Below, piece after piece: positions 2,225-20,718 of a DNA stretch of 40,567 bases. The DNA comes from a virus. The stretch is taken from IMG/VR virus record IMGVR_UViG_3300033145_000158, positions 1-40,567 of that record; one strand, written 5' to 3'. The translations under genes and the position numbers were made by a program. The number at the start of each line of letters is the position of its first letter. The first letter of the stretch is position 1. A model generated the notes under the pieces. The model searched no databases. It was not told the DNA's origin and saw only the letters and a list, made by a program, of their open reading frames with translations.

Positions 2225-3672
2225 TAACAACGAGCCTGACAACTAACGGACTTCTATCTCAATTGGCTGAGGAAGTGATCGAGGAATATGACACCGGCGA
2301 GTCGGGGGCTGATGTCGCCGATATCGTCGCCAACCTCTTGGCTTTTCAACGCAAATCAACGCCGATCACAGTCGGGACTATTGGCGTCACCGGGACAAGG
2401 GCTATACAAGTCACCACCGCCCGGACTATCCTCTCTGTTTTGCTGGAGCTGCAGGAAAGCGTGGGGGGTTATATTAACGTCGATAACGACCGCGTCCTGG
2501 ATTGGCCAACCGATACCGGGGAGGACAAGGGGCAGCAAATCAGATATCGAAAGAACCTGGTCGGCATCGAGCGCACCCGGAACTGGGAAGATTTCTGCAC
2601 CAAACTTCACCTAACTGGGGGAGAAGGCAAGCTATCGGATATTACGGTTGGACCGGTAGCTGTCGACACCGACACCGATGCCACCTATGGCTATATCACA
2701 CTCAAAGAGGCCTACTCGGCCTATCTTGGCTTCACGGCTGAAGGCGAGGCGCTGCCGGCTAATGTTACTATCTGGAAAGAGAATGCAGCACCGGCAGAAA
2801 TTACACCGTCGAATGGGTCGGGAGCCGGGTGGTTTGACATAGAGAGAATATACGACGGTGTTTGGGATACATTTTACGCTGCCAGCGCGGCAGGCTCAGG
2901 AGAGGGGACATACAGCTCTTGGGCTTATGTCGATATTGCCAGCGCATCCTATGTTGGTTTGCACCTCAAAACCAGTGATGGCATGGGGCGTCTGGGTGGG
3001 ATGCAAATAGAGGTCTACGACGGGGCTGACTGGACTAATATCTATGACGGCTCAGAAAGCAAGAATGGGTATATCTATTTTCCTGTCCAGACAGTAGAGA
3101 GGATTAGAATACGGGCGAAGTATGGTTGGGCCAGCGACCAGTTAGAAGTCTTTGAGATCCTTGGTTTAGAAGCAGATATCTCGGATGACACGGCAAACTG
3201 GGTGCAGGGCGCTTTCGAGAATATAGCCAGGTGCGACATCGGGGATTGGGATGCCGGCGCTACTTACTTGATATCTTATACCCACGCCAATTACCTGGTG
3301 GCCTGGGACAAGATAACAGACGGCGATGATATCGTGGCCCACATCGTCCCTGTGCCATCCCGGATCTACAGTATATCGCTGGTCGAATACGGGCGAATAC
3401 TACTCACCGAATTGAAGGAGGATTCCTACACCTATGCGATAGATGCCGTCAACCTGGCCGAGGTAGACAAGAAGTTTAGTTTCGACGAGTTACAGCTCGG
3501 CTCGATAATCACCGTAATTGATGAGGACCTGGGCATTGATATATCAGCCCGGGTGGTTAGAATCTCGTTTGACGCGCTACAGCCGGAGAGGATGCAGATT
3601 GAGATTTCCTCTAGGATTCGGGACATTGCTGACATTATTGCGGGTATGAACAAACTGATACGAGAAGTCTAA
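2221..3672 (+). CDS. Tail hub protein with inserted discoidin-like domain
   Basis: The chosen start is ATG 2221, which forms an ATGA overlap with the upstream stop; an in-frame TTG at 2215 is the alternative. The product has 483 residues. Residues 1-195 contain TTNGLLSQLAEEV and GQQIRYRKNLVGIE, typical of siphovirus tail hub (gp37-like, tail endopeptidase-like) proteins. Residues about 195-318 look like an F5/8-type-C (discoidin) beta-sandwich: RIYDGVWDTFY, SWAYVDIASASYVGLHL, a Y-D-G-A-D-W strand and a final RIRAKYG strand. The C-terminal part returns to the hub fold (SFDELQLGSIITVIDEDLG). The N-terminal hub domain is missing and is found in upstream genes. The insert probably binds host surface glycans (inference). 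Confidence 0.75.
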   Translation: MITTSLTTNGLLSQLAEEVIEEYDTGESGADVADIVANLLAFQRKSTPITVGTIGVTGTRAIQVTTARTILSVLLELQESVGGYINVDNDRVLDWPTDTGEDKGQQIRYRKNLVGIERTRNWEDFCTKLHLTGGEGKLSDITVGPVAVDTDTDATYGYITLKEAYSAYLGFTAEGEALPANVTIWKENAAPAEITPSNGSGAGWFDIERIYDGVWDTFYAASAAGSGEGTYSSWAYVDIASASYVGLHLKTSDGMGRLGGMQIEVYDGADWTNIYDGSESKNGYIYFPVQTVERIRIRAKYGWASDQLEVFEILGLEADISDDTANWVQGAFENIARCDIGDWDAGATYLISYTHANYLVAWDKITDGDDIVAHIVPVPSRIYSISLVEYGRILLTELKEDSYTYAIDAVNLAEVDKKFSFDELQLGSIITVIDEDLGIDISARVVRISFDALQPERMQIEISSRIRDIADIIAGMNKLIREV

Positions 3673-3687
3673 AGAGGAGTTTGCGTA

Positions 3688-3867
3688 ATGGATGATTTAA
3701 GGTGGTTAGCAAGACCGATATTGGCTGGCATTGCCCTGGTTATTTGGGCGATTACATTCTGGGGAACCGGTGAACTACCGCCCACGTTTCTAACAGGATT
3801 AACAGCAACCGCTTGGGGTGCCGTGTTTGTCTCCCGAGAAGTAGAAAAGAAGAAGTTGATAGGATGA
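3688..3867 (+). CDS. Small membrane protein, holin-like candidate
   Basis: A 59-residue product starts at ATG 3688 after AAAGAGGAG. Two hydrophobic segments, about residues 9-25 (ILAGIALVIWAITFWG) and 31-49 (FLTGLTATAWGAVFVS), flank a short acidic turn, and the tail is basic (EVEKKKLIG). The size, two membrane spans and charged C-terminus fit a phage holin. The stop overlaps the next start (ATGA). Position after the tail genes and before a strong terminator also suits lysis. No family signature is visible, so the role is inferred from topology and context. Confidence 0.55.
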   Translation: MDDLRWLARPILAGIALVIWAITFWGTGELPPTFLTGLTATAWGAVFVSREVEKKKLIG

Positions 3868-4088
3868 TTAGATGTAACTGGCACGTTGCAGCCGGGATAA
3901 TAACAGCCTGGAGTTTCTTGGCAGGGTGGGGGTTGCCGATAGTCTGCGCCCTGGCTTTCCTCTATTACGAAACACAGCAGGACAAAAACAAAGGGACGCA
4001 ATCCTACTTGGATATTTATGAGTGGGCGGTTGTCGTCTATATTAACGTGGCGGTGATAATACCGCTCAGATTGTGGGGTATCGTATGA
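3864..4088 (+). CDS. Small membrane protein, lysis-cluster candidate
   Basis: The chosen start is ATG 3864, inside an ATGA overlap with the preceding gene and preceded by an A/G-rich stretch; a longer reading from 3813 would overlap deeply and lacks a better site. The 74-residue product has two hydrophobic parts: one long stretch at about residues 8-33 (AAGIITAWSFLAGWG then PIVCALAFLYY) and one at about 51-72. A polar loop, ETQQDKNKGTQ, lies between them. It could be a second holin or an antiholin. I recognise no family. Confidence 0.5.
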   Translation: MIRCNWHVAAGIITAWSFLAGWGLPIVCALAFLYYETQQDKNKGTQSYLDIYEWAVVVYINVAVIIPLRLWGIV

Positions 4089-4432
4089 GTGCAGACTACC
4101 AGCCAGATTTGATAGAACTGGAGCATAAGACGGATCGGGAATTGCTTATAATCAGCGTGGTCAAACTCAATGCCATAGAGGGGAAAGCCTTACCTGCCAT
4201 TGATGGTCGCCTGGATAAAATTAACGGCACAGTGAAAGACCACGGTAACCGATTAACTGCCATTGAGACAAAGTGCCACGAAACCAGAACGACGATATTC
4301 GCTCGCCTGGATCGCAGGACATCCGATAATACAGGGCGTCCACCCAAAAAGTATGTGGCCATCGGTGCTTCCTTCATTGTCATTATCGGCAGTTTAGGCT
4401 ATGCTGTCGGTCGCATAATGGCATGGTGGTAG
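4085..4432 (+). CDS. Coiled-coil protein with C-terminal membrane anchor (XhlA-like candidate)
   Basis: The chosen start is ATG 4085, in an ATGA overlap; the frame extends to 4073 without support. The 115-residue product has a long amphipathic heptad region (residues about 10-70, including LNAIEGKALPAIDGRLDKIN and later RLTAIETK), a basic linker and one C-terminal membrane segment (VAIGASFIVIIGSLGYAVG). This layout, coil then single membrane anchor beside holin-like genes, is that of hemolysin XhlA-type phage lysis accessories. It is the last gene before a strong terminator, so it ends the late operon. Confidence 0.55.
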   Translation: MSADYQPDLIELEHKTDRELLIISVVKLNAIEGKALPAIDGRLDKINGTVKDHGNRLTAIETKCHETRTTIFARLDRRTSDNTGRPPKKYVAIGASFIVIIGSLGYAVGRIMAWW

Positions 4433-8124: not shown

Positions 8125-8283
8125 ATGAGATACGATTCATTGAGAAAGATAGCACGTAATTCGCAACTCGTAAAATACCGGAGGGAAAACCCTGGATTGA
8201 GCCTCAAAGAAATTGGGCAGGTATTCGGCATCAGCCATGTTCGTGTATATCAAATTCTAAAGAAGGAGATAGCTGGTGAGTGA
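8125..8283 (+). CDS. Small helix-turn-helix DNA-binding protein
   Basis: The product has 52 residues. ATG 8125 follows AAAGGTTGTAAGG. Residues about 22-48 read NPGLSLKEIGQVFGISHVRV, a helix-turn-helix resembling sigma factor region 4 or small phage regulators, with the turn at FGIS and the recognition helix HVRVYQILKK. The N-terminus is basic. It lies just after a promoter with an inverted repeat and overlaps the next gene by 8 bases. Autoregulation or control of the replication block is plausible but inferred. Confidence 0.65.
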   Translation: MRYDSLRKIARNSQLVKYRRENPGLSLKEIGQVFGISHVRVYQILKKEIAGE

Positions 8284-8728
8284 ATATGCGGAGAAGTTAA
8301 GGGACCCTCGCTGGCAAAAGAAACGACTCAAAATCCTTGAACGGGACGAATGGGCCTGCCAGATATGCCATGATTCTGAGTCCACATTAGTTGTCCATCA
8401 CCGAATATATATTGCCAAAACAGAGCCTTGGGATTACCCTGATGATTTATTGGTTACACTTTGTGAGAACTGCCACGAATTAGAACGGGAAATACGCCCA
8501 GAATATGAAAAACTCTTATTGAATAAAGTTCTCTCTAAATTCTTCGCTGATGATTTAAGGCGGTTAGCTCTTGGTTTTAGTAATATAGAATTACTCCATG
8601 CATCAGAGGTTATAGCTAGTGTATATGAGTGGGCATTATCTTCCCCCGCAATTCAGCAAGAACTACTAGGCCGATTTTGGGAAAACCTACATACAGAAGC
8701 AAAGGAGAAGATTAATGCCAAGGGGTAG
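8276..8728 (+). CDS. HNH endonuclease domain protein
   Basis: GTG 8276 lies 7 bases after AAGGAG and gives 150 residues. The zinc/HNH core is CQICHDSESTLVVHHRIYIA followed by LVTLCENCHELE: two CxxC pairs (about residues 29-32 and 63-66), the HH pair and the final His at CENCH. The N-terminus DPRWQKKRLKILERDEWAC is typical of the compact HNH fold of many phage and McrA-type nucleases. The remaining 80 residues are helical. It may nick DNA in replication or packaging, or be a free-standing mobile endonuclease. The location just before the replication initiator is the only contextual clue. Confidence 0.75.
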   Translation: MSEYAEKLRDPRWQKKRLKILERDEWACQICHDSESTLVVHHRIYIAKTEPWDYPDDLLVTLCENCHELEREIRPEYEKLLLNKVLSKFFADDLRRLALGFSNIELLHASEVIASVYEWALSSPAIQQELLGRFWENLHTEAKEKINAKG

Positions 8729-15060: not shown

Positions 15061-15476
15061 CAACCGTGAAGGATTTTTACTCGCCTGGTGAAATTCGATT
15101 TACTGTTAAGCAATCCCTTTGGTTAATCCAAAACCTGGGCACGCTTCGGGAAGGCCGCTGGCCCCCGGAATACTTGAGCGTCATGGGCAGAGGGAAGGGA
15201 CCTCGCAGGGCTCCGTTTGAAACACCTATATTCTACGCCGCTGAAATTGAGACTCGGACGGAACGATGCGGGATAGATGGGTTGATTCTGATAGCTATTG
15301 ATTGCTGGGGCATGACCGTAGACTCGCTGATGATATACCTCCGCATGCCTGAGTGGTCTATCCGCAAAAGAAAGAAGAGAGCGCTAGGATATGTCAGTAG
15401 CGGGCCCGGCAGGAGATGGCTGGATTCTAAGAAGCGGAAAGCCGAGACATACCAAGAATACAAGAGGCGGAAGTAA
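15057..15476 (+). CDS. Putative phage transcriptional regulator (ArpU/RinA-type position)
   Basis: The product has 139 residues and starts in an ATGA overlap. The middle part, ETPIFYAAEIETRTERCGID then GLILIAIDCWGMTVDSLMIY, is followed by LRMPEWSIRKRKKRALGYVS. It has the look of a helix-turn-helix of the sigma-like late-gene regulators, with the turn near CWGMTVD and a basic recognition region. The C-terminus is strongly basic. Late regulators often sit shortly before the terminase genes, as here (only the helicase-methylase gene intervenes). The assignment rests on pattern and position. Confidence 0.4.
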   Translation: MTTVKDFYSPGEIRFTVKQSLWLIQNLGTLREGRWPPEYLSVMGRGKGPRRAPFETPIFYAAEIETRTERCGIDGLILIAIDCWGMTVDSLMIYLRMPEWSIRKRKKRALGYVSSGPGRRWLDSKKRKAETYQEYKRRK

Positions 15477-17734
15477 TGATGAAATCTATGGGGAGTTATC
15501 AAGAATTTCTACAGACAAAAAATGAGCGTATAGTTGATAGTGGGATTGATGTTAGCCGCGAGGATATACACCCTGTGTTATTCGATTGGCAAAAAGATAT
15601 AGTGCAATGGGCGTGCAAAAGGGGGCGATGTGCTATATTCCTAGACACTGGTTTGGGGAAAACGTTTATTCAATTAGAGTGGGCTAGGCTTATAGGTGAA
15701 AACACGTTGATTATTGCCCCTTTATCAGTGGCGAGGCAAACAGTGAGAGAGGCTAAGAAAATAGGCATAGATATTAACTACGTTCGACATCAAGGCGATA
15801 TTACAGGGACGCAGAAGATATGGATTACTAATTACGAGATGATATGTGAGTTCGATTTTAGTTATTTCGATGCTGTTGTATTGGATGAATCCAGCATACT
15901 GAAGTCTATTGCAGGTAAGACACGGAAGCAGCTAACGGCATTATGTGAGGCCACTAAGTATAAAATGTGCTGCACAGCTACGCCGGCGCCGAATGATTAT
16001 ACAGAGATAGGGAATCATACTGAGTTCTTGGGCATATGCACTATATCCGAAATGCTGGCCACCTTCTTTGTCAATGCTAATAAAGAGCGTATCCTATCAC
16101 TAGGGAGTGCTTCGGCCCGCCGGAAGGGCAGTAACAAGGGTGGCACTGAATGGCGATTGAAGCACCACGCCGAATCTGCGTTCTTTGAGTGGATGGCATC
16201 CTGGGCTATTACTATGATAAAACCATCCGATCTGGGTTATGATGATGGCGGATTCGAGTTGCCTGAGTTAAGGGTAACCCCTGTGTTTGTAGGTGCCGAA
16301 TACAATGGTGACCAGTTGTTTTTTACGGGGTTGCATGGGATAACTGATAGAGCAAAAAAGAGGGCTGAGACATTACAGCCCCGCCTCGATATGCTCCGAT
16401 CTAAAGTGAATGGCAATGGGGAGCAGTGGATAATATGGACTGGTTTAACTAGCGAGAGCTCAGGGGCCAAAGCGATATTCCCCGATGCAGTTGAAGTCAA
16501 GGGGAGTGATAGCGCTGAATATAAAGCCAAAGCATTTGAGGACTTCCAAGATGGCAAGTATAACATATTGATTACTAAGACCAAGATAGGCGGATTCGGA
16601 TTAAATCTACAGCAATCACATAATATGGTATTCCTGGGGCTTAACGATTCCTGGGAATCATACTACCAGGCTATCCGTAGGCAATACCGATATGGGCAGA
16701 CTCAGGCAGTTAATGTTTATGTCATTATGTCTGATATGGAATCGGAGATATACTATAATGTTATGCGCAAGGATAAGCTGGCTAGTAATTTAAGGGCCAA
16801 GCTGATAAAGCAAATCAGCAAATATGAGAAAAAGGAGTTAGGTATGTCAGGTGGATTGGCAGTTGACTATAATGAAGATATAGCAACGGGTGAATTATGG
16901 ACGGCCATGCTAGGGGATAGTGCCCAGAGGATAAAGGAGCTAGAGGATAGCACAATAGATTTATCAGTATATTCCCCTCCATTCGCCGATTTATATACAT
17001 ATACTGCTAGTGAAAGGGATTTGGGGAATTGCAGGAATTGGCCGGAGTTCTTTGCTCATTATGCGTTTATCATCTGTGAGGTATTACGAGTGACAAAACC
17101 TGGGCGGCTTACCTGTGTGCATACCTCGGACATACCTGCATTGGCGCAGAAGGATGGATATATAGGGGTTAAGGATTTTCCTGGTGAGGTTATCCGTGCT
17201 TATGAAAAAGAAGGATGGATATTTAGCGGGCGTGCTTTTGTGCAAAAGAATCCCCAGGCGCAGGCCATACGAGTTAAGAGTAAGGCATTGCTTTTTGTCC
17301 AGTTGCGTAGGGACTCGGCGGATTCCCGTCCTGCTTTAATAGATCAGATATTACTATTCAAGAAACCAGGCGATAACGCAGTGCCTATTAACCCTGTTGA
17401 TAATGGGGAATTAGATAACGAAACCTGGATTGAATGGGCGCACGGTATATGGTTGGGAATAAGGGAGACTGAGACGCTACAATATCATCTTGCTCGAGGT
17501 GCTGATGACGAGAAACATATCTGCCCTTTACAGTTAGGTACTATTGAGAGATGCATTAAACTATATTCTAACCCTGGCGAAACAGTGCTAACTCCGTTTG
17601 GGGGTATTGGCAGCGAGGCATATATGGCAGTTAAATTACGGCGCGGGGCAATACTTATTGAGCTAAAGGCAGAATATTTTAAGGTGGCTGTTAATAATTT
17701 AAGGCAGGCTACATCGCAGCAGGTACTATTATAA
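15476..17734 (+). CDS. SNF2-like helicase fused to DNA methyltransferase
   Basis: The product has 752 residues; ATG 15476 overlaps the upstream stop. Residues about 30-450 form a superfamily 2 helicase: Walker A LDTGLGKTF (57-64), motif II VVLDESS (135-140), motif III CCTATPAPND (about 165), motif V TKIGGFGLNLQQ and motif VI QAIRRQYRYGQ. Residues about 460-752 form an amino-methyltransferase: motif IV SPPFADLY (about 499) precedes the SAM-binding motif TPFGGIGSEAY (about 705), the order of beta-class enzymes. SPPF variants often go with N4-cytosine methylation. The fusion may track along DNA while methylating it. Codon use is more AT-rich than in the flanking genes, suggesting separate acquisition. 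No restriction subunit is nearby. Confidence 0.85.
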   Translation: MMKSMGSYQEFLQTKNERIVDSGIDVSREDIHPVLFDWQKDIVQWACKRGRCAIFLDTGLGKTFIQLEWARLIGENTLIIAPLSVARQTVREAKKIGIDINYVRHQGDITGTQKIWITNYEMICEFDFSYFDAVVLDESSILKSIAGKTRKQLTALCEATKYKMCCTATPAPNDYTEIGNHTEFLGICTISEMLATFFVNANKERILSLGSASARRKGSNKGGTEWRLKHHAESAFFEWMASWAITMIKPSDLGYDDGGFELPELRVTPVFVGAEYNGDQLFFTGLHGITDRAKKRAETLQPRLDMLRSKVNGNGEQWIIWTGLTSESSGAKAIFPDAVEVKGSDSAEYKAKAFEDFQDGKYNILITKTKIGGFGLNLQQSHNMVFLGLNDSWESYYQAIRRQYRYGQTQAVNVYVIMSDMESEIYYNVMRKDKLASNLRAKLIKQISKYEKKELGMSGGLAVDYNEDIATGELWTAMLGDSAQRIKELEDSTIDLSVYSPPFADLYTYTASERDLGNCRNWPEFFAHYAFIICEVLRVTKPGRLTCVHTSDIPALAQKDGYIGVKDFPGEVIRAYEKEGWIFSGRAFVQKNPQAQAIRVKSKALLFVQLRRDSADSRPALIDQILLFKKPGDNAVPINPVDNGELDNETWIEWAHGIWLGIRETETLQYHLARGADDEKHICPLQLGTIERCIKLYSNPGETVLTPFGGIGSEAYMAVKLRRGAILIELKAEYFKVAVNNLRQATSQQVLL

Positions 17735-18214: not shown

Positions 18215-18623
18215 TGGCACTAACGGTAATGGTAACAGCGGCGGCCGACCAAAGATAGAAATAGACTGGAAGCGCTTTGAGTCCTATTGCGCTGTTCAGT
18301 GCACCCTACGGGAAATCGCTGACTATTTTGACTGCTCCGAGAAGACCATCGAGAGGAAAGTTAAGGAGCATTACGGTTGTCCTTTTGTCAATATTTTTAA
18401 GCGTAGACGGCAGAAGGGGTTAATGAGCCTTCGTGCCAGTTTATTCAAGATGTCTGAAAAGAGTCCTCAGATGGCTATCTTCCTGGCTAAGAACTGGCTG
18501 GGCATGGCAGACAGGACAGAGGTCACCGGCGCCGGGGGTGGACCACTAGAGACAAAGATAATCGTGGCCAGTGCAGAGGACAAGCGGAACGTGGAACGGG
18601 TGATGCACGGTGAGAGAACTTAG
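18204..18623 (+). CDS. terS: Terminase small subunit
   Basis: The product has 139 residues; ATG 18204. After a Gly/Asn-rich start (residues 1-18) comes a helix-turn-helix (CTLREIADYFDCSEKTIERK, residues about 31-50), typical of small terminases that recognise the packaging site. A basic helix (FKRRRQKGLMSLRASLFKM) and an oligomerisation segment (SPQMAIFLAKNWLGMADRTE) follow; the phrase P-x-x-A-I-F-x-L-K/A-N is common in this family. It lies directly before the large subunit and overlaps it by 14 bases. Confidence 0.85.
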   Translation: MATNGTNGNGNSGGRPKIEIDWKRFESYCAVQCTLREIADYFDCSEKTIERKVKEHYGCPFVNIFKRRRQKGLMSLRASLFKMSEKSPQMAIFLAKNWLGMADRTEVTGAGGGPLETKIIVASAEDKRNVERVMHGERT

Positions 18624-20718
18624 ATATACCCGTATATTCGGGCAGAACAGCTCGGCCTGGCTGGACGGCAAGCGAAGGAGCCTCAATGAAGGCGGAACCG
18701 CCAGCTCGAAGACATGGTCAATCCTTCAATTACTGGAGCAGATAGCCCGGGGAACCAAATCCCCGCTATTGATATCAGTTGTAAGCGAGTCTCTCCCCCA
18801 CCTAAAACGTGGAGCTATCAGAGACTTCTTCCGGATACTGGGAACGACATCGAAAACCGACTCCCAATATAATATGACAGAGAACACCTATACTTTTGGG
18901 GATGGTGTAATTGAGTTCTTCGGAGCTGATGAAGCCGCCAAGGTAAGAGGCCCCCGGCGTGATATCCTCTTCATCAATGAGGCTAACAACGTGCCATGGG
19001 AGACAGCCAGGGGATTAGATATCCGTACCAGGGCATTCACTATAATCGACTGGAATCCGGTCAGTGAGTTCTGGGCCCATGAGTACTGGGTAGGGCAACC
19101 GGAGAATACTTATATCCATTCCACTTACCTTGACGCTGTGGATGTACTACCCCCGGAGATAGTCGCCAATATCGAGTCAAACAAGGACAAGGACCCGAAC
19201 TGGTGGAACATCTACGGGCTGGGGCTAATCGGCAAGGTTGAAGGTCTTGTCTATCCTGTATTCAGCCAGGTGAATGAGTTACCCCATGGGCAGGAGTTCT
19301 ACGGGTTGGACTTCGGCTACTCTTGCCTGAGGGGTGACACGCTTGTTGTTACTGATAAGGGAAACAGAGAAATTAGAAATATAAAAAGGGGGGATAGGGT
19401 TTTAACGAGAAGATGTTACAGGGAAGTAACCTGGTCTGGCAGCAGAGGCGTAAAACAAGTTTATGAACTTGACTTCGGACACGAAAAGCGTATAATAGTA
19501 ACTGGAGACCATTTAATTTATACCGCAAACGGCTGGCAAAGAGCGGATAGATTAAGGAAGGAAGAAACGATATGCGCTTTGAAGTTAAATTCAACGGGAA
19601 AATCTATCGGCGATACCCTAACGGCAAACACCCGAATTACTTTTATTGCAAAAATGGTAGGAGTGGCAAGACCTTTATCCTACATCGGGAAATCTGGAAA
19701 GAAAATTTCGGGGAAATTCCACCGAATGGCGTTATCCACCATCAGGACGGCAATCCCCTTAACAATGGCATCGGAAACCTTGTCCTGGTTACTAACAGCG
19801 AGCATCAAAAAATTCATTACAGAGATAAACTCGGCGCAATACCACCTGAAGAGATGCGCCATATCCGCTCAAAATACGGGTTTACAACTGATAACTGGCG
19901 AGAACGCCATGAAAAGAGCATGGATACCGCAAGGAAGCGGATCAAAAATTGTATTGAGTGCGGCAAGGAAATCACGCCAACGAATACCCACCAAAAATTC
20001 TGTGGCCATATCTGTAGAAAAAGAGCAAACACAAGGCGAAGCCGAAAAGAATATATTTGTGAAAATTGCGGCAAGACATTTATGGCCTCAACGTATTTCC
20101 CGAGAAATGCCTGTTCTTCAAAATGTGCAAGTGCGCTTACGGTTACTAAAAGAAAAGTGCGAAGTATTTGACCTAACGGTAGGTGGCGAACACGAATTTT
20201 TTGCTAACGGCATATTGGTACATAATTGTGACCCTACGGTCTTAGTGAGGAATGTCATTAGAGGCGATGACCTGTTCTCACAGGAGTTAATCTTCGAGAA
20301 GGGGCTAACCAATGATGCGATAGCCTACATGATGGCTGACCTGGGCGTACAGAAGCACTATGATGAAATCTTTGCTGATTCCGCCGAGCCCAAGTCTATC
20401 GAAGAGATATTCCAGCATGGATTTAATATCAAGCCCTGCCCCAAAGGGCCGGGGAGTGTAGAGTACGGTCACCAGAAGGTTAGACAGTATAGACAGTTCT
20501 GGACCAAGGACTCTGTTAACTGCATCAAGGAACAGAGGAACTTCAGGTATATTCCCGACAAGGATGGCAAGCTAACCCAAAAGACAACTCATAACTTTAG
20601 CCACGGGATGGATGCTCGACGTTACGGTGTCGTGGGCGCATTTGAGCCGGTAGATGAAGAGGCCGTCCAAGTCTATGACACGATAAGCGCCGAAGGGGTT
20701 AATTTAGACATTGAGTAA
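18610..20718 (+). CDS. terL: Terminase large subunit interrupted by an intein
   Basis: GTG 18610 starts a 702-residue frame. The ATPase part has a Walker A-like EGGTASSKTW (residues about 28-37) and Walker B DILFINEAN (about 118-126). At residue 239, inside the first acidic motif of the RNase H-like nuclease (GLDFGYS / CDPTVLVRN), a 301-residue intein is inserted (19324-20226). After removal the mature protein would have 401 residues and read DFGYSCDPTVLV, as expected for terminases. Without splicing the packaging nuclease should be inactive, so the phage depends on splicing (inference). The late part keeps FADSAEPKSIEEI and NFSHGMDARRY, typical of the nuclease domain. Confidence 0.92.
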   Translation: MRELRYTRIFGQNSSAWLDGKRRSLNEGGTASSKTWSILQLLEQIARGTKSPLLISVVSESLPHLKRGAIRDFFRILGTTSKTDSQYNMTENTYTFGDGVIEFFGADEAAKVRGPRRDILFINEANNVPWETARGLDIRTRAFTIIDWNPVSEFWAHEYWVGQPENTYIHSTYLDAVDVLPPEIVANIESNKDKDPNWWNIYGLGLIGKVEGLVYPVFSQVNELPHGQEFYGLDFGYSCLRGDTLVVTDKGNREIRNIKRGDRVLTRRCYREVTWSGSRGVKQVYELDFGHEKRIIVTGDHLIYTANGWQRADRLRKEETICALKLNSTGKSIGDTLTANTRITFIAKMVGVARPLSYIGKSGKKISGKFHRMALSTIRTAIPLTMASETLSWLLTASIKKFITEINSAQYHLKRCAISAQNTGLQLITGENAMKRAWIPQGSGSKIVLSAARKSRQRIPTKNSVAISVEKEQTQGEAEKNIFVKIAARHLWPQRISREMPVLQNVQVRLRLLKEKCEVFDLTVGGEHEFFANGILVHNCDPTVLVRNVIRGDDLFSQELIFEKGLTNDAIAYMMADLGVQKHYDEIFADSAEPKSIEEIFQHGFNIKPCPKGPGSVEYGHQKVRQYRQFWTKDSVNCIKEQRNFRYIPDKDGKLTQKTTHNFSHGMDARRYGVVGAFEPVDEEAVQVYDTISAEGVNLDIE
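19324..20226 (+). other. Intein in TerL (splicing domains with out-of-frame HNH insert)
   Basis: The intein starts with Cys1 (CLRGDTLVVTD, block A). It has block B as VTGDHLIYTANGW (the T-x-x-H motif) at about 19500-19535. It ends with block F VFDLTVGGEHEFFANG and block G ILVHN, followed by the +1 Cys of the extein at 20227. All residues needed for class 1 splicing are present. Between about 19580 and 20160 the splicing frame is open but codes sequence with no homing-endonuclease motif; the endonuclease lies in another frame of the same DNA. In effect this is a mini-intein with a long linker. Confidence 0.9.
19572..20171 (+). CDS. HNH homing endonuclease nested out of frame in the TerL intein
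   Basis: A 199-residue frame starts at ATG 19572, 8 bases after AAGGAAGGA. It is offset by 2 bases from the terminase frame and lies wholly within the intein. The HNH core is LHREIWKENFGEIPPNGVIH then HQDGNPLNNG and NLVLVTNSEH: His56-His57, Asn65 and His78, as in HNH homing enzymes of phages. Two C-terminal zinc knuckles follow (Cys127/130/144/148 and Cys163/166/181/185) for DNA binding. It probably cuts intein-less terL alleles to spread the element. It should be translated separately from the terminase, unlike usual intein endonucleases, which are part of the intein chain. Confidence 0.85.
   Translation: MRFEVKFNGKIYRRYPNGKHPNYFYCKNGRSGKTFILHREIWKENFGEIPPNGVIHHQDGNPLNNGIGNLVLVTNSEHQKIHYRDKLGAIPPEEMRHIRSKYGFTTDNWRERHEKSMDTARKRIKNCIECGKEITPTNTHQKFCGHICRKRANTRRSRKEYICENCGKTFMASTYFPRNACSSKCASALTVTKRKVRSI

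What the first reader, a model, noticed from the sequence alone, without database searches (positions are those of the whole stretch)
19324..20226. HNH homing endonuclease nested out of frame inside a terminase intein
The TerL intein has complete splicing motifs at both ends (Cys1, T-x-x-H block, HEFFANG, His-Asn and +1 Cys). Its middle 600 bases encode a full HNH plus double zinc-knuckle endonuclease in a frame shifted by 2 bases, with its own AAGGAAGGA site and ATG. The splicing frame has no stop across the same 600 bases, as it must if TerL is to be made, yet its translation there lacks endonuclease motifs. Homing enzymes of inteins are normally fused in frame. Here a free-standing mobile gene appears to have invaded a mini-intein and two frames are kept open together. 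I know of no described example, but cannot search.
Basis: partly seen in the sequence, partly recalled or inferred. Interest (0 to 1): 0.88.

Follow-up and report, generated by a model that had tools for sequence, protein, structure and literature searches.

The report
Endonuclease gene hidden inside terminase intein
In this phage and at least 17 other distinct cases, the DNA-packaging enzyme (terminase) gene carries a self-splicing protein insert (intein) whose middle 600 or so bases also encode, in a shifted reading frame, a complete DNA-cutting enzyme that probably spreads the insert, so one stretch of DNA is read two ways at once.

Summary
TerL (18610-20718) carries an intein (19324-20226) with intact splicing motifs. 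A 199-aa HNH_3 endonuclease (19572-20171) lies inside it in another frame, while the intein frame stays open. It is not a local indel artefact. IMG/VR, GTDB and GenBank records hold 17 further distinct TerL inteins with the same nesting and the same register. They include isolates TJE1 and Highwayman, and one TerL with two such inteins. No in-frame copy was found. Across the 18 elements the intein frame has 0 stops against 43 expected; free-standing relatives have 59 against 59. Codon-position differences show that the HNH frame is the conserved one, and the intein middle behaves as a stop-free spacer. Inteins plus HNH are far more alike than their host TerLs, and 29 relatives have an empty site, so the element moves as a unit. 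Related TerLs show the HNH between two halves of a split intein, suggesting (not proving) a route to split inteins. Closest known cases are the ShiLan out-of-frame HNH in a methylase, which has no intein, and 'fractured genes' with split inteins. I judge it a new variant of known kinds. Splicing, HNH translation and cleavage remain inferred, and one relevant preprint could not be read.

The parts
18610..20718 (+). terminase large subunit ORF including the intein (GTG start, 702 aa precursor)
   Evidence: phrog_2 terminase large subunit E=2e-27; Terminase_3C PF17288
19324..20226 (+). intein, 301 aa, Cys1 to His-Asn; host motif DFGYS|CDP (TerL RNase H motif I)
   Evidence: PF14890 and Hint_2; motif positions
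19324..19575 (+). N-terminal splicing segment (blocks A and B; CLRGDT..., TGDH at about 19501-19512), 84 aa
19554..19562 (+). Shine-Dalgarno-like AAGGAAGGA before the HNH start
   Evidence: duplex energy -8.3 kcal/mol, close to the local 5% tail (-9.3)
19572..20171 (+). HNH endonuclease ORF, 199 aa, nested in another frame (offset 2 of the TerL frame); ATG overlaps intein codons ATA-TGC (Ile-Cys), TGA overlaps TTT-GAC (Phe-Asp of block F)
   Evidence: HNH_3 E=1.8e-13; phrog_15471 HNH endonuclease E=1e-22; AF2 mean pLDDT 84.9
19674..19817 (+). HNH catalytic core (LHREIW ... IHHQDGNPLNNGIGNL ... EHQKIH)
19950..20015 (+). first zinc knuckle CIECGK...FCGHIC
20058..20126 (+). second zinc knuckle CENCGK...CSSKC
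20158..20226 (+). C-terminal splicing segment CEVFDLTVGGEHEFFANGILVHN (blocks F and G)
   Evidence: TIGR01443 intein_Cterm
20227..20229 (+). +1 extein Cys codon (TGT); the 29 intein-less relatives have no Cys here (mostly Asn, Ser, Thr or Gly)

Best explanation
This is a mobile phage intein with dual coding. The TerL ribosome reads one frame to make a TerL-intein precursor, which splices itself out (inferred from intact motifs) to restore TerL. The middle of that frame is an unconserved spacer kept only free of stops. The same DNA is read in the offset-2 frame from its own start to make a separate I-HmuI-like HNH/zinc-knuckle homing endonuclease (translation inferred). The nuclease cuts intein-less terL alleles at the conserved DFG[FY]S motif, and repair copies in the intein, the nested gene and a splicing-competent +1 Cys (inferred). 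Shown: nesting, conserved register, stop avoidance, selection on the HNH frame, and co-mobility of intein and HNH between unrelated TerLs. Inferred: splicing, expression, cleavage and homing.
For: Same architecture in 18 distinct TerL inteins, all with HNH at offset 2, starting about 72-95 aa after Cys1 where that was measured cleanly and ending about 16-28 aa before the terminal Asn. Intein-frame stops 0 vs 43.3 expected in nested elements, 59 vs 58.8 in free-standing relatives; the third frame is at expectation (353 vs 365). Met is never followed by an A-initial codon in nested HNHs (0/43 vs 15/33, Fisher p=4e-7), and NTA is never followed by a purine (0/56 vs 48/78, p=8e-16). Window vs L002 codon differences at HNH positions 1/2/3 are 0.26/0.25/0.56, so the HNH frame is constrained. 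Mobility: intein segments 55% and 71-77%, HNH 55-62% identical between window, L002 and L004, but exteins only 28-41%; window TerL is 74-82% identical to several intein-less TerLs. Empty site in 29 relatives. HNH model best matches I-HmuI 1u3e (Foldseek prob 0.98).
Against: No expression, splicing or cleavage data. The Foldseek match is weak (E=5e-3, TM 0.3). The AF2 model of the intein frame failed (pLDDT 36 with 3 sequences), so the Hint fold rests on HMMs and motifs. Only about half of the relatives have a clear Shine-Dalgarno signal. The stop statistics treat related sequences as independent, and six of the 18 are not individually significant. Intein-frame identity in the middle slightly exceeds the null (z about 2), so some weak constraint on the spacer cannot be excluded.
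Confidence: 0.85

Rival explanations
1. Assembly or sequencing error: two compensating indels moved an ordinary in-frame HNH intein out of frame.
For: Single metagenomic virus record; HNH inteins are known in frame in other genes (own knowledge).
Against: L002/L003, L004 and 14 other distinct elements in independent assemblies and GenBank phages share the identical register with diverged sequence.
Confidence: 0.01
2. The nested HNH is a packaging co-factor (HK97 gp74-like) working with TerL rather than a homing enzyme.
For: Relatives stand free next to terL in PAE1, CL2, EauM-23, SN1, BP10 and others; HNH proteins are known packaging components (Kala et al. 2014, cited in PMC10448857).
Against: It matches only HNH_3 (I-HmuI-like), not other HNH models, in Pfam. 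Presence is sporadic: 29 relatives of the window TerL lack it at this site, and intein and HNH move together between distant TerLs. Related HNHs occur at about four TerL positions, always with an intein when inside the gene.
Confidence: 0.07
3. Dead HNH: the nested ORF is a decaying relic inside a mini-intein and only the intein frame matters.
For: BL3 (L055) shows a real HNH relic at a TerL intein.
Against: In the window and the other 17 elements the HNH ORF is long and unbroken, catalytic residues are invariant in the aligned members and third-position changes dominate; decay would hit the HNH frame.
Confidence: 0.04
4. The insert is an RNA intron (group I) with an ORF and happens to be open.
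For: HNH_3 enzymes often live in group I introns (own knowledge).
Against: No Rfam match anywhere in the window; intein motifs with Cys1, TxxH, His-Asn and +1 Cys; frame open in all nested relatives.
Confidence: 0.01
5. TerL is made in two pieces in vivo and the intein splices in trans, with the HNH simply lying between, as in relatives whose frame is broken.
For: Vibrio phages (L053, L054), L062 and BL3 (L055) have this split state.
Against: The window frame and 17 others are stop-free far beyond chance, which only a continuous precursor requires.
Confidence: 0.04

Closest known systems
ShiLan domain (Arsenault, Gosselin and Gogarten 2025, PMC11855218)
   Same: A stop-free insertion in a phage gene whose other frame encodes a hidden, mobile HNH endonuclease; from the coordinates given there (GTG at positions 18-20) the register appears the same (offset 2).
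   Different: No intein or intron could be detected in ShiLan, so the insert is thought to stay in the methylase. Here the insert has a full intein splicing domain around the HNH, the host is an essential packaging gene, and no mycobacteriophage was among the matches to this HNH.
Fractured genes / split inteins with a free endonuclease between halves (Dassa 2009, cited; phage MIJ3 PolB, PMC6892783)
   Same: An endonuclease gene lies at the endonuclease position of an intein but is not fused in frame.
   Different: There the host gene is broken into two ORFs and splicing is in trans. Here the intein and host gene remain one open frame overlapping the HNH completely. Split relatives of the same family do exist (L053, L055, L062).
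Canonical bifunctional inteins with an in-frame LAGLIDADG or HNH domain
   Same: Same endonuclease position between blocks B and F; same homing logic.
   Different: The endonuclease is in another frame with its own start and is a separate protein.
I-HmuI and other free or intron-encoded HNH_3 homing endonucleases (PDB 1u3e)
   Same: HNH_3 core; best structural match of the model.
   Different: Carrier is an intein, not a group I intron; the C-terminal part carries two zinc knuckles.

Membership tests
Intein (Hint splicing domain, class 1) | Cys1, block B TxxH, block G His-Asn, +1 Cys/Ser/Thr | tested here: met
   C at 19324, TGDH, VHN|C; splicing motifs also present in the relatives
Intein (Hint splicing domain, class 1) | Homology to Hint/intein profiles | tested here: met
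   PF14890 E=1.1e-12, PF13403 E=1.1e-7
Intein (Hint splicing domain, class 1) | Autocatalytic splicing | not testable with these tools
   no expression data
Canonical bifunctional intein | Endonuclease domain in frame with the splicing domain | tested here: not met
   HNH at offset 2 in 18 of 18 distinct elements
HNH_3 homing endonuclease (I-HmuI type) | HNH_3 profile and catalytic residues | tested here: met
   PF13392 in all 9 members of A1; invariant L37 H38 H56 H57 N65 N69 H78 H82
HNH_3 homing endonuclease (I-HmuI type) | Fold similarity to a solved homing enzyme | tested here: inconclusive
   1u3e top, prob 0.98 but E=5e-3, TM 0.3
HNH_3 homing endonuclease (I-HmuI type) | Cuts the empty allele and drives copying | not testable with these tools
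   only distribution and mobility pattern seen
ShiLan-type hidden HNH insertion | HNH out of frame inside a stop-free insertion in a phage gene | tested here: met
ShiLan-type hidden HNH insertion | No detectable intein or intron around it | tested here: not met
   clear intein splicing domain
Fractured gene / split intein | Host gene broken into separate ORFs, endonuclease between | tested here: not met
   one open frame 18610-20718; met instead in L053, L055, L062
Group I or II intron | Intron RNA structure | tested here: not met
   no Rfam match in the window

The most novel reading that the evidence does not exclude
Dual-coding inteins are a widespread, unrecognised third architecture of mobile inteins (besides in-frame and endonuclease-free ones) that spreads among phage terminases. 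They are also a natural route to split inteins: once the nested gene gives the region its own start, the intein frame can acquire stops and its C-terminal half can be translated separately, as seen in L062, L053 and BL3.
Probability: 0.45. Interest if true: 0.86.

Novelty: new variant of a known kind. Interest (0 to 1): 0.75.

Why it matters
Inteins and their homing endonucleases are textbook in-frame fusions. A family in which a 200-codon nuclease and the host precursor are encoded in two overlapping frames would be a clear, replicated case of a long same-strand overlapping gene in phages. It makes two open questions testable. One is how internally nested genes are translated from a busily read mRNA. 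The other is how split inteins arise, since nested, split-with-HNH and split-with-relic states all occur at TerL. It also warns annotators: the TerL proteins of phages such as TJE1 and Highwayman carry an unannotated nuclease.

Tried and rejected
P0003 as scan query gave nothing. A genome-contig scan with P0002 gave nothing, while L043's HNH found Bacteroides and Prevotella cases. The motif script mis-placed or missed Cys1 in a few relatives (L002, L006, L039, L041, L105); those were read by eye. AF2 of the intein frame was uninformative. Phylogeny could not decide single or multiple origin of nesting: 4 changes for the nested label, weak deep support. Group I intron, indel artefact and dead-HNH readings were rejected on the evidence given. 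An attempt to fetch ShiLan itself used a wrong accession and was dropped. Dassa 2009 is not held, and the Gosselin 2025 preprint (10.1101/2025.01.02.630785) was not found in the library, so a prior description there cannot be excluded.

Full report
Observation. The TerL ORF runs open from 18610 to 20718. Residues 239-539 are an intein: Cys1 at 19324, TGDH in block B, VFDL..HEFFANGILVHN at 20158-20226 and +1 Cys at 20227. Pfam reports Intein_splicing and Hint_2, NCBIfam intein_Cterm, and phmmer solved gp41-1 and DnaB-type inteins. Inside it the ORF 19572-20171 encodes a 199-aa HNH_3 protein with two Cys4 knuckles. Its ATG is built from the intein codons ATA-TGC (Ile-Cys) and its TGA from TTT-GAC (Phe-Asp of block F). 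An AAGGAAGGA lies 9 nt upstream of the ATG. The HNH occupies the usual endonuclease position of an intein, but in another frame.

Relatives. IMG/VR gave L002/L003 (61% HNH identity) and L004 (55%) at the same TerL site with the same register. L005 (W|CDE, Walker B) and L006/L007 sit at other TerL positions. GenBank phages with it, annotated only as TerL where annotated at all, are Tetrasphaera phage TJE1 (L038), Acinetobacter phage Highwayman (L039), Rhodobacteraceae phage LS06-2018-MD07 (L041) and a faecal phage (L043). L051, L052, L058, L059/L060, L061, L105 and the Bacteroides and Prevotella assemblies L081 and L082 add more. L004 has two inteins in one TerL, each with its own nested HNH (2201-2785 and 3476-4105). 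In all 18 distinct elements the HNH is at offset 2 of the TerL frame. No in-frame example turned up.

Is the overlap maintained? For each HNH I permuted synonymous codons and counted stops in the intein register. Nested elements: 0 observed, 43.3 expected. Ten free-standing relatives: 59 observed, 58.8 expected. Two split cases: 21 observed, 21.0 expected. In the remaining register nested elements are at expectation, 353 vs 364.8. Stops in the intein register arise from ATG+A, NTA+purine and NTG+A. Nested HNHs have none of these: 0 of 43 Met are followed by A against 15 of 33 in the others, and 0 of 56 NTA are followed by a purine against 48 of 78. Met codons have no synonym, so the intein frame limits even the HNH amino-acid sequence. 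The register makes sense: it meets far fewer chance stops than the third frame (43 against 365 expected), so it is the easier one to keep open (inference). These sequences are related, so the probabilities are indicative only.

Which frame is selected? Window against L002 differs at HNH codon positions 1/2/3 by 0.26/0.25/0.56; L004 gives 0.29/0.33/0.52. Intein-frame identity in the middle (33%) is close to what HNH conservation alone would give (28%, z=2.1), and closer free-standing pairs show similar or larger excesses. So the HNH is the conserved protein and the intein middle is essentially a spacer. AlphaFold agrees in part: HNH pLDDT 85 with I-HmuI as best PDB match. The intein-frame model was poor throughout (pLDDT 36) and says nothing either way.

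Mobility. Between window and L002/L004 the intein N segment is 55-56%, the C segment 71-77% and the HNH 55-62% identical, while flanking exteins are 28-41% identical. Window TerL is 71-82% identical to four intein-less TerLs examined and 60-64% to a fifth. Twenty-nine relatives have the site without this intein and none has Cys at +1, while the occupied alleles have Cys. This is what homing with co-conversion of the +1 codon would leave; homing itself is inferred.

Split relatives. In Vibrio phages 1.238.A and 1.245.O the N-intein ends at a stop, an HNH ORF follows, and a separate ORF annotated 'hedgehog/hint' carries the C-intein and TerL end. L062-L064 show the same, the C-part opening inside the HNH 3' end. 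In Brochothrix phage BL3, gp2 and gp3 are TerL-IntN and IntC-TerL, with a zinc-knuckle relic of the HNH at the junction. This series is compatible with nested dual coding being a step towards split inteins, but direction and monophyly are unresolved.

Literature. The ShiLan domain is a stop-free insertion in a mycobacteriophage methylase hiding an out-of-frame HNH, but without any detectable intein or intron (PMC11855218). Split inteins with an HNH between halves are known, e.g. phage MIJ3 PolB (PMC6892783), as are TerL inteins generally (PMC8228797). I found no paper with an endonuclease nested out of frame in a continuous, motif-complete intein. The library is partial and one preprint on non-canonical phage inteins could not be read.

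Verdict. Real, recurrent and mobile; a new architecture built from known parts. Translation of the HNH, protein splicing and cleavage of the empty site remain to be shown at the bench.

Noticed in passing
L004 1155-4376: One TerL gene carries two inteins at different sites, each with its own out-of-frame HNH, so a single gene would give TerL, two inteins and two nucleases.
   Followed up: yes
L055 502-2382 (Brochothrix phage BL3): TerL is split into gp2 (TerL-IntN) and gp3 (IntC-TerL-C) with an HNH zinc-knuckle relic at the junction; looks like a natural split intein after loss of the endonuclease.
   Followed up: partly
L053 and L054 about 1884-2871; L062 1020-3287: TerL inteins broken by stops, with a full HNH ORF between N- and C-intein ORFs (split intein with endonuclease between). 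L053 also seems to hold an earlier intein in TerL.
   Followed up: partly
L033 74-2323: Empty at the DFG site but with an ordinary-looking intein with an in-frame LAGLIDADG-like motif (LAGLIDSDG) at the TerL Walker A motif.
   Followed up: no
L059/L060 600-3266: TerL with a second, apparently endonuclease-free intein at the Walker A site, besides the nested-HNH intein near the C-terminus.
   Followed up: no
window 8276-8728: A further HNH-like ORF (CxxC...HH...CxxCH), unrelated in sequence to the nested one by eye.
   Followed up: no
window 15476-17734: Long ORF (752 aa) that by eye looks like an SNF2-type helicase fused to a DNA methyltransferase.
   Followed up: no
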